A stretch of 35,449 nucleotides of DNA from a virus, in IMG/VR virus record IMGVR_UViG_3300026183_000019, positions 1 to 35,449 of that record. One strand, 5' to 3'. A model generated the notes under the pieces. It saw only the letters and a list, made by a program, of their open reading frames with translations. It was not told the origin of the DNA and ran no database searches. Position 1 is the stretch's first letter. Each line of letters opens with the position of its first letter. Below, in pieces: positions 983 through 11,071 of this stretch. Made by a program: the position numbers and the translations under genes.

Positions 983-2164
983 ATGAATAACGAATCTAAA
1001 AATATCGACATAGAGTTGAAAGATGACTCTGGTCAAGTAGAAGCAGTTTTCAGTATATTCAATTCCCTTGACAGTGATGGGGATGTTGTTATGCCTGGAG
1101 CTGTCAAATCTGGTTTTAAAAATAACCAAGTTCCAATGGTATGGTCTCACAAATGGGATATGCCAATTGGTAAAGGAACTATCGCACAAGATGACGATAA
1201 AGCAGTTTTCAAAGGTGAGTTCTTTATGGACACCGAGTCTGGTAAAGAAGCTTACAACCTAGTTAAGAATATGGGCGATATGCAACAATGGTCATTCGGC
1301 TATAAAGTTAACGATTCAGATTTTGGTAAGGCAAAAGATAAAGGCGGAGACGATACAAACGCTAGATATCTAAAAGACCTTACTGTTTACGAAGTCTCTC
1401 CAGTACTTGTTGGAGCAAATCAAGACACATACACATTAGCTATCAAATCAAACACAGAGTTGTTGAAAGAAATAACTGATGTTAAAGGTGATGAAAAAGA
1501 ATCATCTGGATGTGGCGCAAATTGTGGTTGCAGTCAAAAAAGTTATGGAGATGACGAAGAAGAAATGAAATCTTGTAAGTATCACGACGGTGGTCCTTGC
1601 ATGAAAATGGAGGATGATAAAAAAGAAATGAAGAGTGAAGAAGATTTAGAAGTTTCACAGGAAGACAGCAAGTCTTTCTCTGAAGAAGTCATAGATGTGC
1701 TTGCTGCATTAGATGACTTAGTAGCCCGAGCAAAGGCAATATCTATGCTCCGTGGTGAAGATGGTAGGAAATTAGGCGTAAAAGCCACCGAAGCACTTCG
1801 TGCAGTCGCAGACGACTTGAACGACGCTTGGACCGAGATTGATGAGTTCATCGGAAATGTCGGAACTGAGGGTGCTTTGGAGTTAGAAGTAGAAGAAGAA
1901 CTTGTGGAAGATGAACAAGCTGAAACAGAAGAGGTAGCTGAGGCTTCAACTGATACTATTGATGTTGAAACTGAAGTCGAAGAAGTTACTGAGGAAGAAG
2001 CACCAGCAGAGGAACCTGCTGTTGAAGAACCGGAAGATGAAGCTGCTGAAGAAGAAACTCCAGAAGATAACACTGATTCCTCTGACGAAGAATTTGACGC
2101 TGAGTGGATAAGGGCTCAACAAATCATTGCTGAATCCTTAGCCGAAGAAATAGAAGAAGTATAA
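983..2164 (+). CDS. Prohead protease (HK97 family, peptidase S78) with acidic scaffold-like C-terminus
   Basis: The protein (393 residues) is the capsid maturation protease, which cleaves the capsid delta domain and itself inside the procapsid. The N-terminal 155 residues carry the S78 pattern: a DGDVVMPGA segment, His56 in VWSHKWD, Ser104 in QWSFGYKV and Glu137 in YEVSPV, matching the expected His/Ser active site. Residues 177-206 form a cysteine cluster (C177, C181, C183, C198, H201, C206), unusual for this family. Residues 225-290 look helical, and about 290-393 are extremely rich in Glu, as expected of an internal scaffold. No separate scaffold gene is visible, so protease and scaffold are probably fused, as in some HK97-like phages. 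The start at 983 is supported by GAAGG five bases upstream. The major capsid gene follows after 26 bases. Confidence 0.9.
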   Translation: MNNESKNIDIELKDDSGQVEAVFSIFNSLDSDGDVVMPGAVKSGFKNNQVPMVWSHKWDMPIGKGTIAQDDDKAVFKGEFFMDTESGKEAYNLVKNMGDMQQWSFGYKVNDSDFGKAKDKGGDDTNARYLKDLTVYEVSPVLVGANQDTYTLAIKSNTELLKEITDVKGDEKESSGCGANCGCSQKSYGDDEEEMKSCKYHDGGPCMKMEDDKKEMKSEEDLEVSQEDSKSFSEEVIDVLAALDDLVARAKAISMLRGEDGRKLGVKATEALRAVADDLNDAWTEIDEFIGNVGTEGALELEVEEELVEDEQAETEEVAEASTDTIDVETEVEEVTEEEAPAEEPAVEEPEDEAAEEETPEDNTDSSDEEFDAEWIRAQQIIAESLAEEIEEV

Positions 2165-2190
2165 GCAATATAGATTGGAGAAATCTAAAA

Positions 2191-3432
2191 ATGAGTAACA
2201 CAAACGAACTCATGGACCAAATTGCTGCTAAAAGAGCAGAATTAAAATCTGTCTTTGAAGCCAACGAAGACGGCAAGTACACCTCTGAACAAAAAGAGGA
2301 AATTAAGTCAAGAAATGACGAACTTGCTGAATTAGTTGAAGACCTTTCCATTGAGAAGAAAAAAGCTTCCAATGAAAAAGCTCTCAAAGAAGATTCAAAG
2401 CCAGTTGCAGAAATGCCACTAGCTGGTGAATCAGCAGAAGTTAAATCTGTTGGTGAGCAATTTGTTCAAACCGACGCATATAAAAATTATATGGAGGGCG
2501 GTGTTAAAGGTGTAGATTCTCGTATTGAGACAAAAACAACTTTGACAACTACAGGATATCCACCAGAGGTTTTAAGAACCCCGGGTATCTTGGAAACAGC
2601 TCTTAGAGACCCAAATGCTGTTATATCATTATTTGATGTAATCAACAGTGACCAAAATGCATTCAGCTATTTGGAAGAAACAACCTTCACAAATAATGCA
2701 GCTGAAGCTGCTGAAGGTTCTGCTGTTGGAGAAGCAGCTTTGGCTTTCACAGAGCAAACAGAAGCTATCCGTAAAATGGGTATCTTCATTCCTGTAACAG
2801 ACGAATTACTTGCAGACGAAAGTGGTATCCAAGGATACATTAACTCTCGTCTACAAACAATGATAAGACTTCGTTTGGACAACCAACTCCTTAATGGTGA
2901 TGGAACTGCTCCAAACCTAGAAGGTATCTTAGACGCTGGTAAAGCTTCTGTCGGTTCTACTGACTTTAGCGCTTACGCAGGAACTTTAGGAAAAATTGGT
3001 GCACTTTATGGAGCAATCACAGACATCAGAGTCAACGCATTTACAGAGCCAGACGCTATTGTAATGCACCCTAATGACTGGAATGATGTTGTGACTTCTG
3101 TAGGTGCAGACTTCGCAGGTACATCCAGTGCTGGCTACACAGAAAAGTCACCACTTTTCGTAGCAGCTGGTGGTATGGGCGCAGGTCCTTCAGCTCAAAT
3201 CTGGGGACTAAAAGTCGTTCCTACAACCGCAATTGCCGCAGGAACAGTTCTTGTTGGTAAATTCGGTGGTGGTGAAGCAGCTAACTTAGTTATGAGACAA
3301 GGTATGGAATTAGCCGTATCTGACTCCCATAGCGATTTCTTTATTAAGAATCAATTAGCTATCAGAGCTACCATGAGAGTCGGTTTCCCTGTTTACAGAG
3401 AAGCAGCTTTCCATAAAATCACTAACTTCTAA
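2191..3432 (+). CDS. Major capsid protein, HK97 fold
   Basis: This is the shell subunit (413 residues). Residues 1-75 are charged and helical (a Glu/Lys-rich coiled coil), as in the HK97 delta domain removed by the protease. Residues from about 105 carry the HK97 capsid signature: GYPPEVLRTPGI, then LRDPNAVISLFDVI, an E-loop region, GIFIPVTDELLAD, a spine-helix region with LRLDNQLLNGDG and LEGIL, the PDAIVMHPNDW segment, and a C-terminus with QLAIRATMRVGFPVYREAAF. The length is normal for the Phage_capsid family. GGAG at 2177-2180, ten bases before the ATG, fixes the start. A strong terminator follows 22 bases after the stop, so this transcript can end here, consistent with capsid protein being needed in large amounts. 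Confidence 0.95.
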   Translation: MSNTNELMDQIAAKRAELKSVFEANEDGKYTSEQKEEIKSRNDELAELVEDLSIEKKKASNEKALKEDSKPVAEMPLAGESAEVKSVGEQFVQTDAYKNYMEGGVKGVDSRIETKTTLTTTGYPPEVLRTPGILETALRDPNAVISLFDVINSDQNAFSYLEETTFTNNAAEAAEGSAVGEAALAFTEQTEAIRKMGIFIPVTDELLADESGIQGYINSRLQTMIRLRLDNQLLNGDGTAPNLEGILDAGKASVGSTDFSAYAGTLGKIGALYGAITDIRVNAFTEPDAIVMHPNDWNDVVTSVGADFAGTSSAGYTEKSPLFVAAGGMGAGPSAQIWGLKVVPTTAIAAGTVLVGKFGGGEAANLVMRQGMELAVSDSHSDFFIKNQLAIRATMRVGFPVYREAAFHKITNF

Positions 3433-3439
3433 AGTTAGT
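3421..3439 (+). repeat. 8-bp inverted repeat over the capsid stop codon
   Basis: ACTAACTT (3421-3428) and AAGTTAGT (3432-3439) are exact inverted copies with a 3-base loop; the TAA stop (3430-3432) lies in the loop and stem. It sits 16 bases before the terminator hairpin and could protect the 3' end of the message or slow termination. It could also be chance. Confidence 0.4.
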
Positions 3440-3454
3440 TTAGATTTATACATT

Positions 3455-3485
3455 AGAGCGGGGTTAAACCCGCTCTTTTGTTTTT
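3455..3485 (+). terminator. Rho-independent terminator after the capsid gene
   Basis: AGAGCGGG (3455-3462) pairs with CCCGCTCT (3469-3476) across a 6-base loop, giving an 8-bp stem with five G-C pairs. It is followed by TTTGTTTTT. It is the only strong intrinsic terminator I found in the window. It separates capsid-gene expression from the connector and tail genes. Confidence 0.9.
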
Positions 3486-3491
3486 ATAGTG

Positions 3492-3497
3492 TAAAAT
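3492..3497 (+). promoter_or_regulatory. Possible -10 box (TAAAAT) before the small basic gene
   Basis: TG-TAAAAT lies ten bases before the ATG at 3507 and just after the terminator; TATAGT at 3485-3490 is a second candidate. No Shine-Dalgarno site separates it from the ATG, so a transcript starting here would have a leader of about three bases. Confidence 0.35.
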
Positions 3498-3506
3498 TAG
3501 AACATC

Positions 3507-3764
3507 ATGTCAGATTATATTAAACCAAAGAAAAGCATTTGGAAAATGAAAGATGGTTCCATTTGGGAAGGTCCTTTATCAGAACTTCCTAAGTCTGGAG
3601 CTTCTCTCATTGCTAAAGCAGGTAAAGAATATCCAGCTGATTGGCTCAAAGAGCAAGGTTGGGGTAAAGAGGAGAAGAAAGAAAAATCTGCTCCTAAGAA
3701 AAAAGCTGCTAAAAAAGCACCAGAAACCAAAGCTGTTAAACCAGAAGATACAGAAGATAAGTAA
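3507..3764 (+). CDS. Small basic protein of unknown function between capsid and connector
   Basis: An 85-residue protein. Residues 1-52 form a compact, Trp-rich part (SIWKMKDGSIWEG, ADWLKEQGWG). Residues 53-85 are a Lys/Ala/Pro-rich tail (KKKAAKKAP) that looks disordered. No family is recognised. Position suggests a minor head or neck protein, or a nucleic-acid-binding accessory. It has no clear Shine-Dalgarno site; a TAAAAT box lies ten bases upstream of the ATG. Its stop (3762-3764) overlaps the AAGGAG Shine-Dalgarno site of the connector gene, so the two genes are probably translated together. An overlapping frame at 3553-3774 is a shadow. Confidence 0.75.
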   Translation: MSDYIKPKKSIWKMKDGSIWEGPLSELPKSGASLIAKAGKEYPADWLKEQGWGKEEKKEKSAPKKKAAKKAPETKAVKPEDTEDK

Positions 3765-3774
3765 GGAGTCCTAA

Positions 3775-4419
3775 ATGGCTCTTTGTAGCGTTGGTGATGT
3801 AGAGCAATTCTTACAGGTAGATTTAAACTCTACTGTAGAAGCTTCAGTCACAAATACTTTTATACCTTATGTTGACGCGGCTATTAAGCGTTATCTAGGT
3901 CATGATGTAGAAAAAGCAACTTATACAGAAGTATTTGACGGAAATGAACAACAAGACTTATTTTTAAGGCATGTTCCTGTTGCCTCTATAACTTCTATTA
4001 CTGAAGATAGTAATGCACTTACTGAAGGCAATGAGAGTGACTATGTTTCTTACACCAACGGAAGATTAAGAAGAATAGTTATTCGTTGGTCTGGTATAAA
4101 ACCTAAAAATATTTCAGTTACTTATGTTGGCGGTTACGAAGCTGCTGACATTCCAGAACAAATCAAACAAACTTCTGCACGAGCCGCAGCTCGTTTAGTT
4201 ATGACTTCTTTACAGATTTCAGCAAAAGCTGACACTGGAGAAGTTTCAAGTCACTTAGCTGACAATACAACAACACAAAGTTTTGACATACCTCTTACTG
4301 AAAGGGTGGGAGATTATGATGTTGCTTTTGGTGATGTAATTATACAAAACCTGCAACCTGTTCTTACTAATGCAGATATGGCATTATTAAACCCCTTTCG
4401 TTCAAGATTCTTTGTATAA
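3775..4419 (+). CDS. Head-tail connector (gp6-like adaptor)
   Basis: The protein (214 residues) is expected to form the ring under the portal. The start MALCSVGDVEQFL, the helix FIPYVDAAIKRYLGHD (residues 30-45), the DLFLRHVPVASITSITED strand pair and YVGGYEAADIPEQIKQTSARAAARL are characteristic of HK97 gp6/SPP1 gp15-like connectors. The start is set by a textbook AAGGAG (3763-3768) six bases before the ATG. The remaining neck genes would normally follow at once, but here four accessory genes (4427-7283) intervene before the head-closure gene at 7306. The family assignment rests on sequence pattern and gene order. Confidence 0.8.
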   Translation: MALCSVGDVEQFLQVDLNSTVEASVTNTFIPYVDAAIKRYLGHDVEKATYTEVFDGNEQQDLFLRHVPVASITSITEDSNALTEGNESDYVSYTNGRLRRIVIRWSGIKPKNISVTYVGGYEAADIPEQIKQTSARAAARLVMTSLQISAKADTGEVSSHLADNTTTQSFDIPLTERVGDYDVAFGDVIIQNLQPVLTNADMALLNPFRSRFFV

Positions 4420-4420
4420 T
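4415..4420 (+). promoter_or_regulatory. TATAAT box placed for a leaderless transcript of the HTH/zinc-ribbon gene
   Basis: A perfect TATAAT overlaps the stop of the connector gene. The ATG of the next gene is exactly seven bases after the last T, where transcription would be expected to begin. There is no Shine-Dalgarno site. No good -35 is seen. The same seven-base geometry occurs at 7294-7306 and 29215-29227. Confidence 0.5.
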
Positions 4421-4426
4421 TAAAGT

Positions 4427-5071
4427 ATGGTACATAGAAAAGCTCCTTCCCTAGAGGAAGCTAGGGAACTCTTTTTAGCAGACCCTAATAAAATGCTACA
4501 GTCATGGGCAGATGAATGGGGTGTAACACATGAAAGAGTTAGACAATTAAGAATAGAATCGGGCGTACCTCAACGAGGTGCTTATAACGAAGAAACAGCA
4601 GAAGCTATTTTAGAAATTATTCGTACAGGTAGAGGTGGTCTAACAACTCCAAGAACTTACGAAGGTCAACCTATTGGCTTAGAAAGATTTAAAACTTGGA
4701 TAGAAGAAGAAGAGGGTTTGAAAGAGCGTGTTGAAAAAGCACAAAAAGAAGCTCTTAAAAACTTAAAAGACCCTATTGAAAAAGAATGTAAGTATTGTCG
4801 TGAATGGAAACCTATAGAAGAATATTCTAGAAATCAAAAATACTTAGATGGTCTTTCTCGTTTTTGCAAAGATTGCATGATTATTTTAAAAGAGAAAAAA
4901 GAAGAACTAGGTGATGATAAAATGAAATTATGTTTATCCTGTAAGAAAGATAAGAAAACTTCAGAGTTTTCAAAAAATCCTAACGCACAAGATAAACTTA
5001 AAATATTCTGTAAAGAATGTCATAAAGCATTTAAACGCAGAAAAAGGAGACAAAGTAGGAATGAAATTTAA
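4427..5071 (+). CDS. Putative DNA-binding protein: helix-turn-helix plus two zinc ribbons
   Basis: A 214-residue protein in two parts. Residues 21-46 form a helix-turn-helix resembling sigma-70 region 4 (SWADEWGVTHERVRQLRIES). Residues 121-150 and 169-198 are two tandem zinc ribbons with identical spacing, Cys-x2-Cys-x22-Cys-x2-Cys (C121, C124, C147, C150; C169, C172, C195, C198). Such ribbons accompany HNH nucleases and phage regulators, but I see no HNH or GIY-YIG catalytic motif here. The C-terminus is very basic (KRRKRRQSR). It opens the accessory island and overlaps the next gene by 11 bases. Regulator or DNA-binding partner of the island is the best guess; a nuclease relic is an alternative. 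A TATAAT box ends seven bases before its ATG. Confidence 0.8.
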   Translation: MVHRKAPSLEEARELFLADPNKMLQSWADEWGVTHERVRQLRIESGVPQRGAYNEETAEAILEIIRTGRGGLTTPRTYEGQPIGLERFKTWIEEEEGLKERVEKAQKEALKNLKDPIEKECKYCREWKPIEEYSRNQKYLDGLSRFCKDCMIILKEKKEELGDDKMKLCLSCKKDKKTSEFSKNPNAQDKLKIFCKECHKAFKRRKRRQSRNEI

Positions 5072-5867
5072 GTTCAATAAGAAACAGACAATAGAATTTA
5101 AAACAGACATAATGGGTTTAGCAAAATTTGCACCTGTTGTACCAGCACAAGAAGCAGTGCCAGATTGGTTTAAAGAGATGAAGCACTATATGGAGGAAAA
5201 ACCACAAGGTTGGAATCCACAAGCCATGCCCGGTCAAGCTAAAAATCTATTTGGAAAAATGGGTAAGACTGCACAAAATATGTTTTATTCATTTACTGTA
5301 AAAAGATGTCCAGCAATAGTAGATATCATGACAGAAGGTTTTGTAATTCCTATGTGGTCTGACTTTTTACTACAAAGAGGTTTTCCGCCTAACATGGGTG
5401 GAGAAGAAATACTAGAATGGGATAACAGAGATTTTCCCTATGGTGCTTCTTTTCATGAAAATAATCAAATATACAATTGGGACTTACCTTCAAAAAGTAC
5501 TTACAAACATCCACTTAAGTTTCATAGTCCTTGGAAGTTTTTTACTCCAAAAGGATATTCAACATTGTTTATACCTTACAACTATAACTTTCAATCAGAT
5601 TATTCAGTGCTTCCCGGAATTGTAGAAACTGATACTTGGCACGAAGTAAACTTTCCTACACTTATTCATAAGAAAAAAGATTTTATGATAAAAAGAGGAA
5701 CACCTTTTGTTCAAGCAATTCCTTTTAAAAGAAGCAAGTGGAATTTAAAAATGGATATGGTAACACAAGAAGAAAAAAATGCTGAGGACGCTAGAAAGAA
5801 TTTTACTAGTGGTAACTTTAACCAAGGGTATAGAAAAGCAACTAAGTTGGATTTTGACAATGCCTAG
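5061..5867 (+). CDS. DUF6065-like protein common in marine phages
   Basis: A 268-residue protein of unknown biochemical role. Three blocks stand out: TVKRCPAIVDIMTEGFVIP (79-97), FHSPWKFFTPKGYSTLFIP (154-172), and LPGIVETDTWHEVNFP (184-199) with IKRGTPFVQAIPFKR (210-224). From memory, this series recurs in proteins of marine T4-like and related phages, sometimes labelled DUF6065. The G-T-P-F-V-Q-A-I-P-F block recalls the beta-barrel core of dUTPase-like folds, but no dUTPase active-site motifs are evident. AAGGAGA (5044-5050) lies ten bases before the ATG. It overlaps the previous gene by 11 bases and the next by 8, so it is co-translated with the island. Confidence 0.8.
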   Translation: MKFKFNKKQTIEFKTDIMGLAKFAPVVPAQEAVPDWFKEMKHYMEEKPQGWNPQAMPGQAKNLFGKMGKTAQNMFYSFTVKRCPAIVDIMTEGFVIPMWSDFLLQRGFPPNMGGEEILEWDNRDFPYGASFHENNQIYNWDLPSKSTYKHPLKFHSPWKFFTPKGYSTLFIPYNYNFQSDYSVLPGIVETDTWHEVNFPTLIHKKKDFMIKRGTPFVQAIPFKRSKWNLKMDMVTQEEKNAEDARKNFTSGNFNQGYRKATKLDFDNA

Positions 5868-6105
5868 ATACGATTACCAATGTATATTGCATAGATGTTC
5901 TTTTGAATGGGAAGTTAGTCATTCTATTACAGAAGACCCATTAATTAAATGTCCTAAGTGTAATTCACACGCTAAAAGACAGATTGGAAAAAATATTAGG
6001 TTTGAAACTCCTGTAGATGTTGAGTGGGAAAAAGACCCAAGTAATTTGTCTGAAAAATCTTATAAACAATTTCAAAAAGCTAAGAAGAAAAAATACAGAT
6101 GGTAA
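5860..6105 (+). CDS. Small FmdB-like zinc-ribbon protein
   Basis: An 81-residue protein beginning MPRYDYQC, the standard start of FmdB-type putative regulatory zinc ribbons. Probable metal ligands are C8, C13 (or H11, since the usual Cys-x2-Cys is here C-I-L-H-R-C), C31 and C34 (CPKC). The tail is basic and aromatic (KKKKYRW). A longer frame reaching back to 5779 exists, but the FmdB pattern fixes the start at 5860, overlapping the previous stop by 8 bases. The ATG of the next gene overlaps its stop by 7 bases. Function is unknown; FmdB-like ribbons are often passenger genes in phages and may act in regulation or protein contacts. Confidence 0.8.
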   Translation: MPRYDYQCILHRCSFEWEVSHSITEDPLIKCPKCNSHAKRQIGKNIRFETPVDVEWEKDPSNLSEKSYKQFQKAKKKKYRW

Positions 6106-7283
6106 TGGACAAAGGTACAGAAGAAGTTGTATCTGGAGTAGGTAGATACTTTTTTAACTATAAAAGCTATGCAATAATTAGAGACCCAATACAAACTAAA
6201 AACTTTTTACTTGTTATGTATGTGCCTATTAGAGACTTGACTTTTGATAGACCTGCGCAAAAACAATTAATACCAATACACCCTAATTGCAATATTGTAG
6301 ATTACGATACAAAAGTAGCAGACGAAATAATTAGAAGTGTTAAAGAAGAGTACGGAGAAAAAGGAACATTTCACTTAAAGTCACAAGGTATAAAAATATA
6401 CTGTTCTGATGTAGAAGTAAATGAATCAGCTGAAAGAGTTACTGTAACTATAAAAGACCCAGATACACAAGGAATTATTGATGGTGCTAATTTATATACT
6501 CTTGTAAAAGATATGAGAGTAGAAGATGTTGCTAAAAATTCTTTTATTAAGGTTGAACTAATAATTGGACACGACGCAGACTTATCTGATGATTTGACTG
6601 CAACACTAGACAGTAAACTAACATCTCGTAAAGATGTTAATGTATCTAATAAAGAGCTTGCTTGGCTAGATGAAATAATTGATGAAACAGATTACAAAGA
6701 CCAATTAGACGCTGTATATGTTCTTGGCCTTATAGATTTATTAAGAAGTAATCAATATGACGCAGAAGTAGAGAACCAACCAATATATCCATATTGGGAT
6801 AAGCAAAGAGTATTAGAGATGTATAGAGATAATCCTAAAGGATATCAGCAATATAAAACTATTGTAAAAGACATACTTTATTTATACGATTATATAAATT
6901 TTAAAACTCAAGAGATATGGCCATCTAAAAAGGGAAGTATAGGAAGTTTAGGTATAGCTACTTCTTACAAGCAAAAAGGTTATGACTTTCCTTTACTTGG
7001 TAAAAAAATGGACTACAAGTTACATGACGCAGTTAGTTTTATTATTATGAATGGATTTAGGTCGTTTGTGATATTTAATCCCGACGGAACAGCTAGATGG
7101 TCAAAAGATTTTAAAAAAGTACTTTCTCTCTATGAAATTATCGGTGCAGAGATAATTAACATAATTAGAGATTACAGCGCTCAAATGGGACATAACCCTC
7201 ACTTACTTGGTAAAAATAAAATGCTTTACAGTATTGTTTATAAAGAATTTATGATGGGAGATATGCTTAACCAATTTTTATAA
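6099..7283 (+). CDS. AIPR/DGQHR-like protein (abortive-infection related family)
   Basis: A 394-residue protein. Spaced blocks resemble the AIPR family (abortive infection phage resistance, PF10592) and the related DGQHR/DndB fold: FHLKSQGIKIYC (91-102, cf. F..NNGI.I.), GIIDGANLY (125-133, cf. IVDGQHT), FIKVELIIGHD (149-159) and LTSRKDVNVSNKEL (174-187, cf. I...N....V...SL). AIPR proteins are usually longer, and their biochemical role is not settled; members occur in anti-phage loci. Here the gene ends the accessory island, overlaps the zinc-ribbon gene by 7 bases and precedes the head-closure gene by 22. Possible roles are superinfection exclusion, DNA-modification sensing or counter-defence. 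The family match is by eye and could be wrong; residues 200-394 show no motif I recognise. Confidence 0.6.
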   Translation: MVMDKGTEEVVSGVGRYFFNYKSYAIIRDPIQTKNFLLVMYVPIRDLTFDRPAQKQLIPIHPNCNIVDYDTKVADEIIRSVKEEYGEKGTFHLKSQGIKIYCSDVEVNESAERVTVTIKDPDTQGIIDGANLYTLVKDMRVEDVAKNSFIKVELIIGHDADLSDDLTATLDSKLTSRKDVNVSNKELAWLDEIIDETDYKDQLDAVYVLGLIDLLRSNQYDAEVENQPIYPYWDKQRVLEMYRDNPKGYQQYKTIVKDILYLYDYINFKTQEIWPSKKGSIGSLGIATSYKQKGYDFPLLGKKMDYKLHDAVSFIIMNGFRSFVIFNPDGTARWSKDFKKVLSLYEIIGAEIINIIRDYSAQMGHNPHLLGKNKMLYSIVYKEFMMGDMLNQFL

Positions 7284-7293
7284 CATCCTGTTG

Positions 7294-7299
7294 TAAAGT
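7294..7299 (+). promoter_or_regulatory. TAAAGT box placed for a leaderless head-closure transcript
   Basis: TTG-TAAAGT lies in the 22-base gap after the island. The ATG at 7306 is seven bases after the last T, the same geometry as at 4415-4427. No Shine-Dalgarno site precedes this ATG. It would restart expression of the neck genes downstream of the inserted island. Confidence 0.4.
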
Positions 7300-7305
7300 A
7301 TAGTT

Positions 7306-7641
7306 ATGGCTTTAAAGCATAGACACTTACCAGAATCAATAACAATTCAAACAGTATCAGATACTAATATTGATGAACGAGGTTTACCTAGTGATAACTG
7401 GGCAAACACTTATACATCTGTTAGAGCTAAATTTGAATCCCAAGGCTCTGAAGAAGATAGAGATGGAAGAAATACAACAATAGAAACATTTTTCGTATAT
7501 TTAGAGCCTAATGTTACTGTAGTTCCCGGAGACAGGCTTGTTAGAGGTTCTGATTATCATGAAATAATTGTTGTACAACCTGTCTTAGACAGATATGGAA
7601 ACGAATCATATAAAAGGTTACAAACATTTGTGAGTAAGTAA
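7306..7641 (+). CDS. Head-closure (head-tail joining) protein, SPP1 gp16/HK97 gp7-like
   Basis: A 111-residue beta-rich protein with the usual layout of the phage head-tail joining family (PF05521). It opens RHLPESITIQT, then DERGLPSDNWANTYTSVRAKFE, a strand TTIETFFVYLEPNV, the turn VVPGDRLVRGSDYHEIIVVQPVLD, and ends RLQTFVSK. It seals the connector once DNA is packaged and provides the docking face for the tail. Its length is normal. It has no Shine-Dalgarno site but a promoter-like TAAAGT seven bases upstream. Its stop TAA shares one base with the next ATG (TAATG), so translation is coupled. Confidence 0.85.
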   Translation: MALKHRHLPESITIQTVSDTNIDERGLPSDNWANTYTSVRAKFESQGSEEDRDGRNTTIETFFVYLEPNVTVVPGDRLVRGSDYHEIIVVQPVLDRYGNESYKRLQTFVSK

Positions 7642-9545
7642 TGGTAACTCCATTAGAAGCTTTAGCTAAAAAACCTAAAAGAAAAAAACCTAATAAAAAT
7701 AAATCAAATGCTGAAATATTCAGAGATAGATTTTATAGTTTCGGTAAAAAGGCTGGTACAGCACAAGCTATACCGGGTATTCGTGGTTCTAATTTAGGTA
7801 GAACTTTACAAAACCAGCGTGCTTTAGTCTATCCAATAGCTCGTGGTCTTGGTACTGCGCAGTCAATTGGTAGAGAAGGAAATAAAGTTGCTGCTTTAGC
7901 TAATAGAGCTTTCAGAATTGCTTCTGGTTCTATAAGTGGTAGAATAATAGAATCCACAGTAAGACCATTTAATCTAGGACCAATAGTAGGTCGTCTTGCT
8001 CGTATTCAATTAGGTAAAGCTTTAAGTAAAAATAATCCAATTGATAATGCTGTTAGAAAGATGGGTCTTGCTGTTACAGGAACTGTAAAAATAAAAGGAA
8101 GCGCTTTAAATTCAAAAATACGAAGAGACCCAGCTATAAAAAAAATAGCACAAAAGGGTTTACTTTTAGCAGAAAGAAATATAAGAGCTTTTGCTCCAGA
8201 CCCGTCATCTGGACAATATTTAGTAGGAATGGGTAAACAAAAAAACATTGCTAAAAAATATCAAGGTGGTATTGATATGAATTTAGTCAACAGTACAGAC
8301 GCTTTTAAAAAACATGGTTTTTCTGAATATATAGCTAAAGATAAAAAATATGTTCATAGAGATTTATTTGGTTTTACAGAACCGGGTTTGGCGAGAAAAT
8401 TTTTACATATGTCTATACAAAGAAGAGATGTTACAGCAACAAGAGGAAAATATGTAGACCATTTCTTTAAAGGAGAAATTAGAGTAGGTGGAGATATGTT
8501 TCCATGGATTTGGGCTTTAGAGTATGGAGGAGATGTTCCATACTATGCTCCTAAAAAATATGATAAATCTAAAAAAAGAAGAGGTTGGAACGATACTTAT
8601 ACTGGTGCTTCACATTCTAGTAGAACAGAAATAGGTAAAGAAAATTTAGATATTCCTTTAGATATGTATGTACCAAAAGACCAATATGTACCACCAACAT
8701 TTTTTATTTATAGAGCAGCTGAAAGAGCGGCTTTATCTATGAAAAAACATACAGAAGTTGAAAGCTACGCAATGGGTGGTGAATCTGCTCAGCATTATAG
8801 AAAATGGATGAGGTTGGCAACTAAAAATCATAAATCTATGGCTGGAATATTAAGTGGAAAAAACAAATTAAGCTATAACACACCGGGAAGTTCACAAAAT
8901 TATTTGAATACCTTTTACAGATTAGATGGTAGAGCTAAAGACACATTTAGCTACATGGAGCAAAGGATACCCGGACCAAGAGTTGAATATTCACATGGTA
9001 ATTTTTATCATCCAGATTTAGCAGAAGCAATTGGAATCAAAAGAGTTCCAGAAGATTTTGCATTTAGTTTTAATATGCCTGTAAGAAAACAAGATAGTGA
9101 AGCAATACTTAAAAAAGCAGCAGATATATATGTTAGAAGAGGCGGTACTAATTCAACTACTGATGTTAATAAGAAATTCAAATCAAATGCTGTAGTTGAG
9201 GAAATAGCAAGAATGTTAAACTCACAACCGGGAAGAAAAAATACTATTGACGCAAACATAGCAGACGCTACAAGATATGTAAGCATGTTTGATAGATATA
9301 ACAAAGCTAGAGGCAATGTGGGTTATAAATTTAGAAGAGCTGAATATTTAGACAAAGTCTATGATTTTAGTGCAAAGCGTCAAGGTAAGAGAATGATAAT
9401 TACTCTACGAAAGAAATATGGAGGCAAAACAAATGCTCGTGGAGCTGAAATAGATAGAGATAAAAAAGATTCTCTAGCAAGGTCTGCTTGGTCTGCATTA
9501 GAAATAGATGACTTAATGAATGAAGTCATGGGAATGGATTTTTAA
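7641..9545 (+). CDS. Oversized HK97 gp10-like tail-completion protein
   Basis: A 634-residue protein in the slot normally held by the roughly 120-150-residue gp10/tail-completion protein. A gp10-like core seems to span about residues 165-365: AQKGLLLAERNIRAFAPDPSSGQ, an equivalent of the usual 'A.......AP.dtG', later FPWIWALEYGGDVP (288-300), and PPTFFIYRAAERA (351-363), the usual terminal helix. It carries a basic N-terminal extension of 165 residues (KKPKRKKPNKNK near the start) and a C-terminal extension of about 270 residues that I do not recognise. The extra parts may decorate the neck or be an internal passenger protein. It is coupled to the head-closure gene by TAATG. Confidence 0.65.
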   Translation: MVTPLEALAKKPKRKKPNKNKSNAEIFRDRFYSFGKKAGTAQAIPGIRGSNLGRTLQNQRALVYPIARGLGTAQSIGREGNKVAALANRAFRIASGSISGRIIESTVRPFNLGPIVGRLARIQLGKALSKNNPIDNAVRKMGLAVTGTVKIKGSALNSKIRRDPAIKKIAQKGLLLAERNIRAFAPDPSSGQYLVGMGKQKNIAKKYQGGIDMNLVNSTDAFKKHGFSEYIAKDKKYVHRDLFGFTEPGLARKFLHMSIQRRDVTATRGKYVDHFFKGEIRVGGDMFPWIWALEYGGDVPYYAPKKYDKSKKRRGWNDTYTGASHSSRTEIGKENLDIPLDMYVPKDQYVPPTFFIYRAAERAALSMKKHTEVESYAMGGESAQHYRKWMRLATKNHKSMAGILSGKNKLSYNTPGSSQNYLNTFYRLDGRAKDTFSYMEQRIPGPRVEYSHGNFYHPDLAEAIGIKRVPEDFAFSFNMPVRKQDSEAILKKAADIYVRRGGTNSTTDVNKKFKSNAVVEEIARMLNSQPGRKNTIDANIADATRYVSMFDRYNKARGNVGYKFRRAEYLDKVYDFSAKRQGKRMIITLRKKYGGKTNARGAEIDRDKKDSLARSAWSALEIDDLMNEVMGMDF

Positions 9546-9548
9546 TGA

Positions 9549-9559
9549 TACAATACAAT
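9549..9559 (+). promoter_or_regulatory. Tandem TACAAT boxes before the tail terminator gene
   Basis: TACAATACAAT gives two overlapping -10-like hexamers (9549-9554, preceded by TGA, and 9554-9559) directly upstream of the ATG at 9564, with no Shine-Dalgarno site. Initiation from the first would leave a leader of about three bases. No -35 is convincing. Confidence 0.35.
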
Positions 9560-9563
9560 CACT

Positions 9564-10055
9564 ATGGCTATTAAAAATGTAGGTGTCCACGGACACGCGG
9601 CAATGAATTTTCCACCAGACGCTGAAATTATTTTCAGAGAATGGGCTGTAAACAGTTCTATTATTACTGATGTTTGCGGAACTAGAATCGCAACTAGATT
9701 ACCTCGTAATGCAGATTTACCTTTTTTAACATTTTTTAACAATGGTGGAAGTATGGTTAGTAATTTAAGTGACGCTGCTATTGGTTCAAGTTCTTTACAA
9801 ATTAATGCTTTTGCAGGAAGATGGGGAAGTGGAAGCTCTTCACAGCCTAATTACGCTAAAGCATATGAGCTAGCTAATGCAGTAGCAGAAGCAGCATTTA
9901 AAACTGGAAAGACAATAGTTCACACTGAAAGTTCTAACACAAAAGCAGTAATTTATGGTTTTGATGTTGTCCAATTACCAGAGAGGATAGAAGAGACTGA
10001 CACTGGATTAGGACATTATCAGCTATCATTAAGTATGTATTATAGAGGAACATAA
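9564..10055 (+). CDS. Tail terminator / tail completion protein (DUF3168-like)
   Basis: A 163-residue protein of the fold that caps the tail tube and joins it to the head. Typical elements are PPDAEIIFREWAVNSSIITDVCGTRIATRLP (residues 17-47), PFLTFFNNGG (53-62), the strand SSLQINAFAGRWG, the helix AKAYELANAVAEAA and the C-terminal HYQLSLSMYYRG. These parallel the DUF3168/lambda gpU-like arrangement, and the position between gp10-like and major tail genes is the expected one. The next gene begins one base after its stop. Confidence 0.75.
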   Translation: MAIKNVGVHGHAAMNFPPDAEIIFREWAVNSSIITDVCGTRIATRLPRNADLPFLTFFNNGGSMVSNLSDAAIGSSSLQINAFAGRWGSGSSSQPNYAKAYELANAVAEAAFKTGKTIVHTESSNTKAVIYGFDVVQLPERIEETDTGLGHYQLSLSMYYRGT

Positions 10056-10056
10056 T

Positions 10057-10335
10057 ATGAAGAAGATAAAAGTTAAGATTAACCCTTTGTTAAACAAAAG
10101 CGTTGTTAGAGATACTAACAGCGGTATTGTTTTCAAAAGTGATTGGGTGGAAATACCGGTCGAAACTTGGGAGCGCCTTAAACCAAATAAATACAATCAA
10201 GGCGGAGAGCGCATATCCGTATTGATTGCAGATGATGAAGGTTATGAGGAAGAACCAATCGACGAATCAACAGAAGATGACAAAGACGCTGTTGAGGAGG
10301 TAGTGGAAGACTTCTTTATTGCTGAAGAAGAGTAA
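10057..10335 (+). CDS. Small acidic protein of unknown function
   Basis: A 92-residue protein. The first half is basic with KVKINPLLNK, SGIVFKSDWVEIP and TWERLKP. The second half is very acidic (EEEPIDESTEDDKD, EEVVEDFF). I recognise no family. It follows the tail terminator by one base and precedes the structured gap before the major tail gene. Its codons include several GC-rich ones (GAGCGC, CGCATA), slightly unlike its neighbours. A minor neck/tail protein or a chaperone is possible. Confidence 0.7.
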   Translation: MKKIKVKINPLLNKSVVRDTNSGIVFKSDWVEIPVETWERLKPNKYNQGGERISVLIADDEGYEEEPIDESTEDDKDAVEEVVEDFFIAEEE

Positions 10336-10341
10336 CGACAA

Positions 10342-10380
10342 AGCAGAATCGACTTTTTATTAAGTCGGCAGAGCTCTGCT
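10342..10380 (+). other. Nested hairpin/palindrome upstream of the major tail gene
   Basis: In the 82-base gap, CGACTT (10350-10355) pairs with AAGTCG (10362-10367) over a 6-base loop. AGCAGA (10342-10347) can pair with TCTGCT (10375-10380) to enclose it. GCAGAGCTCTGC (10368-10379) is itself a perfect 12-base palindrome that competes with the outer stem. No T-run follows, so it is a poor intrinsic terminator. It may shape mRNA processing, stability or translation of the highly expressed tail gene. Confidence 0.5.
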
Positions 10381-10417
10381 GATTAAGTATAAGTATAAGA
10401 TATGTTAGGAGAAACAA

Positions 10418-11071
10418 ATGAGTTTCAATACAACAGGTACAATTAACGAAGTATTAATTGGTACAGGTGTTCTATATATCAAAGACCGTTCTACTGCTTC
10501 TCTTGCGTTTCCATCAGATGATGGTTCAAACGCTTGGGAAGACCCAACAGGACTAACAGTTCCTTGGGACGAAGTAGGATATTCTGAAGACGGTTGGACT
10601 TTAGAAGTTGATAAAACTTTTGAAGATGTAATGGTCGCAGAAGAGCTAGACCCAATCAAATCATTGAAGTCAGCACAAGAAGTTAGACTTACAGGAGAAA
10701 TGGCACAAGCCTCTCTTGATAACTTAGCTGTCGCATTAGGCGGCGGTTCCGTTGCTGAAGATTCAGTGAACTATGCTACTGGTTACTATAAATATGTACC
10801 ACCAGTAACAGACCAGTTCACTGAGTATGCACTAGTTTTGCATACTGATGGTAAAGCAGGAAGCGATAGACAATTCCATATCCCTAGAGCAGTGAATGTA
10901 GGTTCATTCTCTATGGCACATCAAAAAGCTCCACAAAAAGTTACTTTGGCAACTGAGTTTAAATTACTCGTTCCAGATTCTTTTAATGTTGGCGCTGATA
11001 GTGCTGGAAATAACTATCTCTTCATAGTCGTTGAGAATAGAAACGATAGTGACGAATTAGACATCAACTAA
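10418..11071 (+). CDS. Major tail (tube) protein
   Basis: A 217-residue beta-rich protein that polymerises into the tail tube. It has the features of siphovirus tube proteins: an N-terminal strand with TINEVLIGTGVLYI, a GYSEDGWTLEVDKTFEDVMVAEEL segment (the tube strand and loop), KSAQEVRLTGEMAQASLDNLAVALG, and a C-terminal FKLLVPDS strand. It sits immediately before the chaperone pair and tape measure, the usual order. AGGAG (10407-10411) six bases upstream sets the start, one of the best ribosome sites in the window, in keeping with high expression. Confidence 0.9.
   Translation: MSFNTTGTINEVLIGTGVLYIKDRSTASLAFPSDDGSNAWEDPTGLTVPWDEVGYSEDGWTLEVDKTFEDVMVAEELDPIKSLKSAQEVRLTGEMAQASLDNLAVALGGGSVAEDSVNYATGYYKYVPPVTDQFTEYALVLHTDGKAGSDRQFHIPRAVNVGSFSMAHQKAPQKVTLATEFKLLVPDSFNVGADSAGNNYLFIVVENRNDSDELDIN

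What the first reader, a model, noticed from the sequence alone, without database searches (positions are those of the whole stretch)
4427..7283. Four-gene accessory island inserted inside the neck operon
Head-tail connector (3775) and head-closure protein (7306) are normally adjacent. Here four overlapping genes lie between them: HTH plus double zinc ribbon, DUF6065-like, FmdB-like ribbon and an AIPR/DGQHR-like protein. The overlaps (11, 8 and 7 bases) show one coupled unit. Promoter-like boxes lie at both edges, as if the island is expressed on its own and the neck genes are then restarted. Two metal-ribbon proteins plus an AIPR-like protein could be a phage-borne defence, counter-defence or DNA-modification-sensing system.
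Basis: partly seen in the sequence, partly recalled or inferred. Interest (0 to 1): 0.75.

Follow-up and report, generated by a model that had tools for sequence, protein, structure and literature searches.

The report
Swappable gene slot in phage neck
In a group of uncultured phages that probably infect actinobacteria, four small non-structural genes sit between two genes for the phage neck, in a slot whose content differs between relatives and that seems to be switched on separately; what the genes do is not yet known.

Summary
In detail: four overlapping ORFs (overlaps 11, 8 and 7 bases) lie between connector and closure genes. Relatives turn the 'island' into a slot. Of 72 distinct connector-to-closure sequences, 49 carry p1-(p2)-p3-p4, 7 p1-HNH-110aa, 6 WhiB-p1, 8 (p2)-p3-reverse-strand genes-p1, and 2 nothing. 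p1 (HTH plus zinc ribbons) is the anchor; p2 comes and goes just before p3. Identity breaks fall at the p4/closure border. Closure has a TANNNT box starting 12 bases before its ATG in 38 of 43 upstreams and almost no Shine-Dalgarno; both empty sites lack the box and have purine-rich stretches instead. That fits leaderless restart of the neck operon after the cargo. p4 is a diverged AIPR homologue with a probable ParB/Srx-like N-domain. p2's family also lies near fibre-like, oxygenase and glycosyltransferase genes in relatives. Defence is supported only by p4's kinship: no PADLOC match, and p4 is in all 49 sequences of its clade. Best reading: a separately transcribed accessory slot whose products act in the cell, not in the virion; expression and function are inferred.

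The parts
3775..4419 (+). head-tail connector (adaptor), left border of the slot
   Evidence: phrog_442 E 1.1e-21
4415..4420 (+). TATAAT at -12 to -7 of p1: candidate -10 box of a leaderless transcript; overlaps the connector stop codon
   Evidence: TANNNT at this offset in 17 of 39 distinct p1 upstreams, also in two clade-D loci where it does not overlap the connector
4427..5071 (+). p1: HTH protein with a recognition helix resembling sigma region 4 (weak evidence) and two zinc ribbons; anchor of the slot
   Evidence: between connector and closure in 70 of 72 sequences
5061..5867 (+). p2: phrog_7084 / DUF6065-like protein; optional cassette
   Evidence: phrog_7084 E 1.1e-61; present or absent exactly at the p3 start
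5860..6105 (+). p3: FmdB-type zinc ribbon protein
   Evidence: Zn_ribbon_8 1.3e-10; TIGR02605 2.1e-9
6099..7283 (+). p4: AIPR homologue, probable ParB/Srx-like N-terminal domain (about 26-177) and helical C-terminal part
7294..7299 (+). TAAAGT at -12 to -7 of the closure gene: candidate -10 box for leaderless restart of the neck operon
   Evidence: TANNNT here in 38 of 43 distinct upstreams, Shine-Dalgarno-like motif in 1 of 43; both empty sites have a purine-rich stretch instead
7306..7641 (+). head-closure protein, right border of the slot
   Evidence: position; relatives' homologues match PF05521 and phrog_25

Best explanation
The interval between connector and closure is a cargo slot in the structural operon of a group of uncultured tailed phages that most likely infect actinobacteria (marine ones by inference). 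Shown: cargo differs by clade, is absent in two relatives, and recombines independently of the closure gene. Shown by comparison: the closure gene has a conserved -10-like box placed for a leaderless mRNA, so the neck-tail operon could restart after the cargo; p1 has the same arrangement in the window's own group. Inferred: the cargo is transcribed as its own unit and its proteins work in the infected cell, not in the virion. Proposed mechanism: p1 binds DNA through its HTH and steers transcription; p4, an AIPR protein with a ParB/Srx-like domain, is a nucleotide- or DNA-responsive switch that works with p1 (the pair with the most similar divergence pattern), as the related DndB is described to do as an ATP-dependent repressor; p3 is a small ribbon adaptor; p2 is an optional accessory gene from a family linked to modification-gene clusters.
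For: Slot contents: tally. Empty sites L245 and L252. Deposited phages with adjacent genes. Breakpoints: window vs L005 and L008 87-100% from 1900 to 3900, 80-91% in 3900-4400, 82-100% over the shared parts of p1-p4, then 48-72% from 7300 to 9400; L010 shares closure and the next ORF with the window (95-100%) but p4 with L005 and L008 (93-100%), while its closure is 59-74% to theirs; dS in window vs L010 is 0.54 for p4, 0.06 for connector, 0.13 for closure. Promoters: with connector (box 2 of 45, SD-like 38 of 45) and capsid protein (0 of 33, 31 of 33) as controls; a clade-D locus adds a terminator-like hairpin before the closure box. p1-p4 distance correlation 0.89, highest in a matrix of 8 genes. 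p4 kinship; fold: 56, 58. Host: WhiB in the slot of clade B and elsewhere in the clade-A record G001. Purifying selection on all four genes, dN/dS 0.03-0.28 in comparisons with the window (p2 in two comparisons only). Literature: TANNNT and leaderless transcripts in M. tuberculosis, PMC3898074 passages; DndB, PMC12704722 passages.
Against: No expression, binding or proteomic data. p1's TATAAT is partly forced by the connector's last codons (GTA TAA T), and 18 of 39 p1 upstreams have a Shine-Dalgarno-like motif. TANNNT peaks at other offsets occur at two further genes of the operon (the 85-aa ORF: 7 of 39 at -12, 20 at -15, 19 at -20; the gene at 9564: 2 of 25 at -12, 13 at -15), so the slot is not the only place with such boxes. 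Clade B has no such box at its left edge. The sigma-4 resemblance is weak: RpoH 0.0019 and SigA 0.78 with the p1 profile, a PPR protein scores better; Pfam Sigma70_r4 in 1 of 18 at 0.13. p4 lacks the Q and R of DGQHR motifs. Part of the p1-p4 correlation is shared ancestry, and p1 also correlates with a tail gene at 0.82. The closure protein of the empty sites has no profile match and is identified by place and size; only two empty sites are known.
Confidence: 0.6

Rival explanations
1. The block is a phage-borne defence or superinfection-exclusion system with p4 as the effector or sensor, expressed to keep rival phages out.
For: p4 is an AIPR homologue; AIPR proteins are reported with restriction-modification operons (passages of PMC3506569 and PMC2292703). 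Of the 4 cellular relatives found, one lies next to a HEPN/MNT-like pair and one near a DNA-methylase-like and a putative endonuclease gene, by reading their ORFs without profile search.
Against: No PADLOC match for 8 proteins tested, of which 5 are p4 or its relatives; no toxin or nuclease domain among the profile matches of p4; p4 is in all 49 clade-A sequences, 47 of them with an open frame of at least 385 aa, rather than sporadic; p1 and p3 occur in other clades without p4.
Confidence: 0.2
2. The proteins are virion or assembly factors of the neck that became fixed in this clade.
For: Position between two neck genes; strong purifying selection; p4 universal in its clade.
Against: p4 alleles 93-100% alike sit beside closure genes only 59-74% alike, so no co-variation with the partner in that comparison; other clades and empty sites do without p2-p4; clade-D cargo includes reverse-strand genes.
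Confidence: 0.12
3. A chance pile-up of selfish or decaying genes with no joint function.
For: p2 and p3 have relatives elsewhere in these genomes; p3 distances correlate little with those of neighbours (0.03-0.31).
Against: Low dN/dS in all four genes and clean overlapping junctions kept after gain or loss of p2.
Confidence: 0.08

Closest known systems
Accessory genes inserted among structural genes of actinobacteriophages (for example Microbacterium cluster ED, PMC7302621, passages)
   Same: Extra genes break the canonical head-tail order
   Different: There the insert lies between capsid and connector; here between connector and closure, with documented alternatives, an empty state, and a promoter-like box found with the filled state
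AIPR proteins (PF10592) and the wider ParB/Srx, DGQHR, DndB, GmrS group
   Same: p4 aligns over 323 columns with a cellular AIPR protein; N-domain resembles ParB/Noc folds at modest scores
   Different: Phage-borne, no HEPN match, DG-x-[NHY]-x-Y in the p4 proteins aligned instead of DGQHR; no modification genes beside it in the window
Ca. Actinomarina phages with WhiB (PMC3861242, PMC7771536, passages)
   Same: Size and GC near the G13 row of PMC3861242 (35,410 bases, 35.4%; window 35,449 bases, 35.2%); WhiB in relatives
   Different: I did not compare sequences with those records; the window's own record has no WhiB
phrog_7084 proteins of cyanophages and haloviruses
   Same: p2 matches 64 records, at most 30.7% identity in the 40 rows listed
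   Different: In the three inspected they lie by tryptophan halogenase, ribonucleotide reductase or thymidylate synthase genes, not in the neck

Membership tests
AIPR family (PF10592) | profile match | tested here: met
   Window protein 21.7 bits, under the 25-bit cut-off; 7 of 29 alignment members, window included, match at E <= 1, best 4.4e-10; three cellular relatives match at 1.1e-19 to 1.2e-23, and one aligns to the p4 profile with 99.7% probability over 323 columns
AIPR family (PF10592) | ParB/Srx-type N-terminal fold | tested here: inconclusive
   Model pLDDT 78.7, pTM 0.55; the top 11 rows are ParB, Noc, PadC or SspE at Z 4.4-5.5, first unrelated row 3.7, all under the level the tool calls safe; best Foldseek PDB E 0.086; viral library: an unnamed phage protein 8.7e-9, AIPR 3.1e-5, then GmrSD and DUF262 at 1.8e-3 and weaker
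ParB/DGQHR NTPases | DGQHR-type nucleotide motif | tested here: not met
   p4 reads IIDGANLY; in alignment A7 only D, G and the Y four places on are invariant there; its cellular AIPR relatives read ADGGHTYE
Known anti-phage defence system | match to a model of PADLOC-DB | tested here: not met
   0 of 8 proteins matched at E <= 1; the library is of 2023
Known anti-phage defence system | protection against phages | not testable with these tools
   needs an experiment
Moron-type cargo in a structural operon | extra genes between structural genes that relatives lack | tested here: met
   2 empty sites and 3 other kinds of content
Moron-type cargo in a structural operon | own promoter | tested here: inconclusive
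   Comparative -10 signal at p1 and strongly at closure; not measured; plain consensus scan at chance level
Moron-type cargo in a structural operon | own terminator | tested here: inconclusive
   Clade D (L249): 11-pair stem with T run before closure; none listed at the p4/closure border of the window
Sigma-70 region 4 domain (p1) | profile match to region 4 | tested here: inconclusive
   RpoH chain 0.0019 and SigA 0.78 with the p1 profile, but a synthetic PPR protein at 0.00073 ranks first; Pfam 1 of 18 at 0.13
Terminase small subunit (p1) | only small terminase of the genome | tested here: not met
   A phrog_4102 small terminase (8.3e-36) lies upstream of the large subunit in the close relative G010; the window itself starts after that region. 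Against: one p1 relative gives a weak Sf6_terminase match (0.022)

The most novel reading that the evidence does not exclude
p1 and p4 form a nucleotide-gated transcription switch carried in a dedicated neck slot: an AIPR/ParB-Srx protein senses nucleotide or DNA state during infection and acts through a sigma-4-like HTH partner to time late genes, while WhiB (known to act with sigma region 4, recalled) fills the same slot beside p1 in a sister clade. The slot would then be a docking place for interchangeable transcription-takeover modules, with a leaderless restart promoter as its insulation.
Probability: 0.18. Interest if true: 0.75.

Novelty: new variant of a known kind. Interest (0 to 1): 0.5.

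Why it matters
It gives a natural experiment: the same two neck genes with nothing, WhiB, HNH, enzyme-like or AIPR cargo between them, and a promoter-like box before the closure gene in the filled clades that both known empty sites lack. It supplies a phage context for AIPR proteins and points to leaderless transcription as a way for phages of actinobacteria to carry cargo inside an essential operon.

Tried and rejected
p1 as small terminase: rejected, a separate one exists in G010. p1 as endonuclease VII: the best stretches of those PHROG hits cover ribbon residues only. Structure of p2: the model failed, pLDDT 32 with 5 sequences, so no fold is claimed. PDB sequence search for p4 and p2: one chance-level row and none. 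p1 in deposited phages: no match in 50,697 records at E <= 0.01; p4: one match, E 1e-3. Generic promoter scan: at chance level. The cellular scan with p4 gave 4 relatives at 23-26% and none of them a phage of this group, so the host is inferred, not shown. Fold search: apart from SspE, which shares the ParB-like domain, I saw no defence protein in the rows shown; that proves nothing. Literature, in this library only: no paper holds the word DUF6065; searches for inserts in structural operons, for head-tail inserts in actinobacteriophages and for leaderless cargo promoters listed none with this arrangement in titles and abstract starts; of those listed only PMC7302621 was opened, at passages.

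Counts: first gave 76 exact-sequence-distinct connector-to-closure sequences; 4 of them were contained in others, so one search gives 72 (from 222 loci with both genes). They are not one per species; identical sequences from different contigs count once. Left out: loci without both genes, three in the wrong orientation (L279, L294, L295), and eight locus ids before the search (L001, which is the window itself, L031-L033 and L200-L203, deposited phages). Two of the 72 give split p1 and p4 matches, probably frameshifts, and are counted with clade A. Contents were assigned by tblastn with queries taken from the clades themselves; small ORFs such as the 56-aa and 64-66-aa ones are not in the tally.

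Papers seen as passages only: PMC7771536, PMC3861242, PMC3506569, PMC2292703, PMC12704722, PMC10853773, PMC4619093, PMC3898074, PMC7302621; all others as search listings.
Full report
What is there. The window is a 35,449-base virus record, 35.2% GC, with prohead protease and HK97-type capsid protein, connector, closure, tail and fibre-like genes. Between the connector (3775-4419) and the closure gene (7306-7641) lie four ORFs that overlap by 11, 8 and 7 bases. p1 is an HTH protein with two CxxC ribbons, p2 a phrog_7084 protein, p3 an FmdB-type ribbon, p4 an AIPR-like protein. Of four deposited phages inspected, the two with both genes named, Streptomyces phage Dubu and Microbacterium phage Franklin22, have adaptor and stopper adjacent.

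The slot. Relatives were gathered with p4, p2, connector and p1 queries in viral contigs (two searches were capped at 80 loci). In 72 distinct connector-to-closure sequences the content is: p1-p3-p4 in 40, p1-p2-p3-p4 in 7, p1-p3-p4 in split matches in 2 (clade A, 49 in all); WhiB-p1 in 6 (clade B); p1-HNH-110aa in 7 (clade C); p3-reverse SLT-like-p1 in 5 and p2-p3-reverse SET-reverse SLT-like-p1 in 3 (clade D); nothing in 2 (ORFs read; WhiB, SET and SLT profiles, the SLT match just under Pfam's cut-off; HNH). p1 is thus present in 70 of 72. Among 14 records searched whole, p1 is single-copy in 13 and not found in the empty-site record; p4 is found in 2, both of the window's clade. Most records may be fragments.

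Gain and loss of p2 is clean. With p2, p1 ends over the p2 start and p2 ends over the p3 start; in p2-less L010 and L005, p1 ends over the p3 start. A p2 directly before p3 also comes and goes in the distant clade D. The p2 family has members elsewhere in these genomes: 6 of 14 records, with 3, 4 and 3 copies in G003, G004 and G006. By reading the fetched regions, some copies lie between fibre-like ORFs and others in clusters with a 2OG-Fe(II) oxygenase (4.3e-9), a weak FkbM match (0.008), a ferredoxin-like ORF and, in G006, a GlcNAc-type glycosyltransferase (7.9e-19). A p3-like FmdB gene lies away from the neck in 3 of the 5 clade-C records searched, below Pfam's cut-off; in the one inspected, G005, it overlaps a GlcNAc-type glycosyltransferase gene. 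So p2 and p3 look like pieces of a modification repertoire rather than of defence; this is inference from neighbours.

Recombination. Against L005 and L008 identity is 87-100% from 1900 to 3900, 80-91% in the second half of the connector, 82-100% over the shared parts of p1-p4, and 48-72% from 7300 to 9400. L010 has the window's connector (92-100%), closure and following ORF (95-100%) but the p4 of L005 and L008 (93-100%; its closure is 59-74% to theirs); against the window its p3-p4 is mostly 82-96%. Against L022 the break is at the p3/p4 border instead. In window vs L010 dS is 0.54 in p4 but 0.06 in the connector and 0.13 in closure, with p4 dN/dS 0.04: old alleles exchanged as a block, under strong purifying selection. 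Among eight genes of 29 representatives (27 for p3, 24 and 23 for two tail genes) the highest correlation of pairwise distances is p1 with p4 (0.89; p1 with a tail gene 0.82; p4 with closure 0.59).

Expression. TANNNT begins exactly 12 bases before the closure ATG in 38 of 43 distinct upstreams, with a Shine-Dalgarno-like motif in 1. Other genes: connector 2 of 45 and 38 of 45; capsid protein 0 of 33 and 31 of 33; major tail protein 0 of 29 and 25 of 29; protease 0 of 22 and 16 of 22; but the 85-aa ORF has 7 of 39 at -12 with larger peaks at -15 and -20, and the gene at 9564 has 2 of 25 with a peak at -15. At p1 it is 17 of 39 (3 more one base nearer), Shine-Dalgarno-like in 18 of 39; in the window's group it overlaps the connector stop, but clade-D loci L240 and L249 have it well away from the connector. 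The two empty sites lack the box and have a purine-rich stretch before the closure ATG instead (AGGAGG in one, AGGGGG in the other). In L249 a hairpin with a T run precedes the closure box. In M. tuberculosis TANNNT lies 7-12 bases before 73% of primary starts and about a quarter of genes are leaderless (PMC3898074, passages), so the placing predicts leaderless mRNAs. A plain consensus scan is at chance level.

p4. Seven of 29 alignment members match Pfam AIPR (best 4.4e-10). Four bacterial relatives were found (23-26% identity); the three tested match AIPR at 1.1e-19 to 1.2e-23, and one aligns to the p4 profile with 99.7% probability over 323 columns. The model (pLDDT 78.7, pTM 0.55) resembles ParB, Noc, PadC and SspE over about residues 26-177 at Z 4.4-5.5, modest scores. 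The Q and R of DGQHR are absent. PMC3506569 places the DndB N-domain in the AIPR family; PMC12704722 reports nucleotide binding by diverse ParB-fold proteins including a DndB-like one. No PADLOC model matches.

Host. WhiB, described as found only in Actinobacteria (PMC3861242), lies in the slot of clade B and elsewhere in the clade-A record G001 (3 of 11 records have it). The window has none. GC and size agree with a reported Ca. Actinomarina phage group; I did not compare sequences with it, and 'marine' rests on that likeness.

Verdict. A real accessory slot with comparative signs of separate expression, known in kind (genes interrupting structural operons are reported, PMC7302621) but with another place, a documented empty state and a promoter-like box that goes with the filled state. 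The defence reading rests on p4's family alone. The most likely role is intracellular regulation or accessory function, with the p1-p4 pair as the core in this clade; this part is inference.

Noticed in passing
window 4447-4468: Hairpin followed by a T-rich stretch inside codons 7-15 of p1; the stem is kept in several relatives, in some with changes on both sides, and lost in others. Possible attenuator.
   Followed up: partly
window 3400-10500: 12 terminator-like sites against 3.1 (sd 1.9) in shuffles, including a strong one after the capsid gene at 3455-3476.
   Followed up: no
window 7641-9545: The 634-aa protein after closure is 34-48% alike in many relatives whose capsid proteins are 84-98% alike, yet 98-100% in L002-L004 and L010; it swaps together with closure.
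   Followed up: partly
L297 and L300: In relatives, clusters with 2OG-Fe(II)-oxygenase-like, FkbM-like, ferredoxin-like and several phrog_7084 genes, with a GlcNAc-type glycosyltransferase in L297: a possible modification locus (profiles run on L297 only).
   Followed up: no
L276 1896-2563 and L144 8476-9079: An HNH gene plus a small acidic ORF lies upstream of the large terminase in a close relative of the window, while a similar-looking pair lies in the neck slot in clade C.
   Followed up: partly
L257 8879-9181, reverse strand: A small SET-domain protein (1.9e-10) on the reverse strand inside the neck slot; a similar-looking ORF lies near the small terminase in G001.
   Followed up: no
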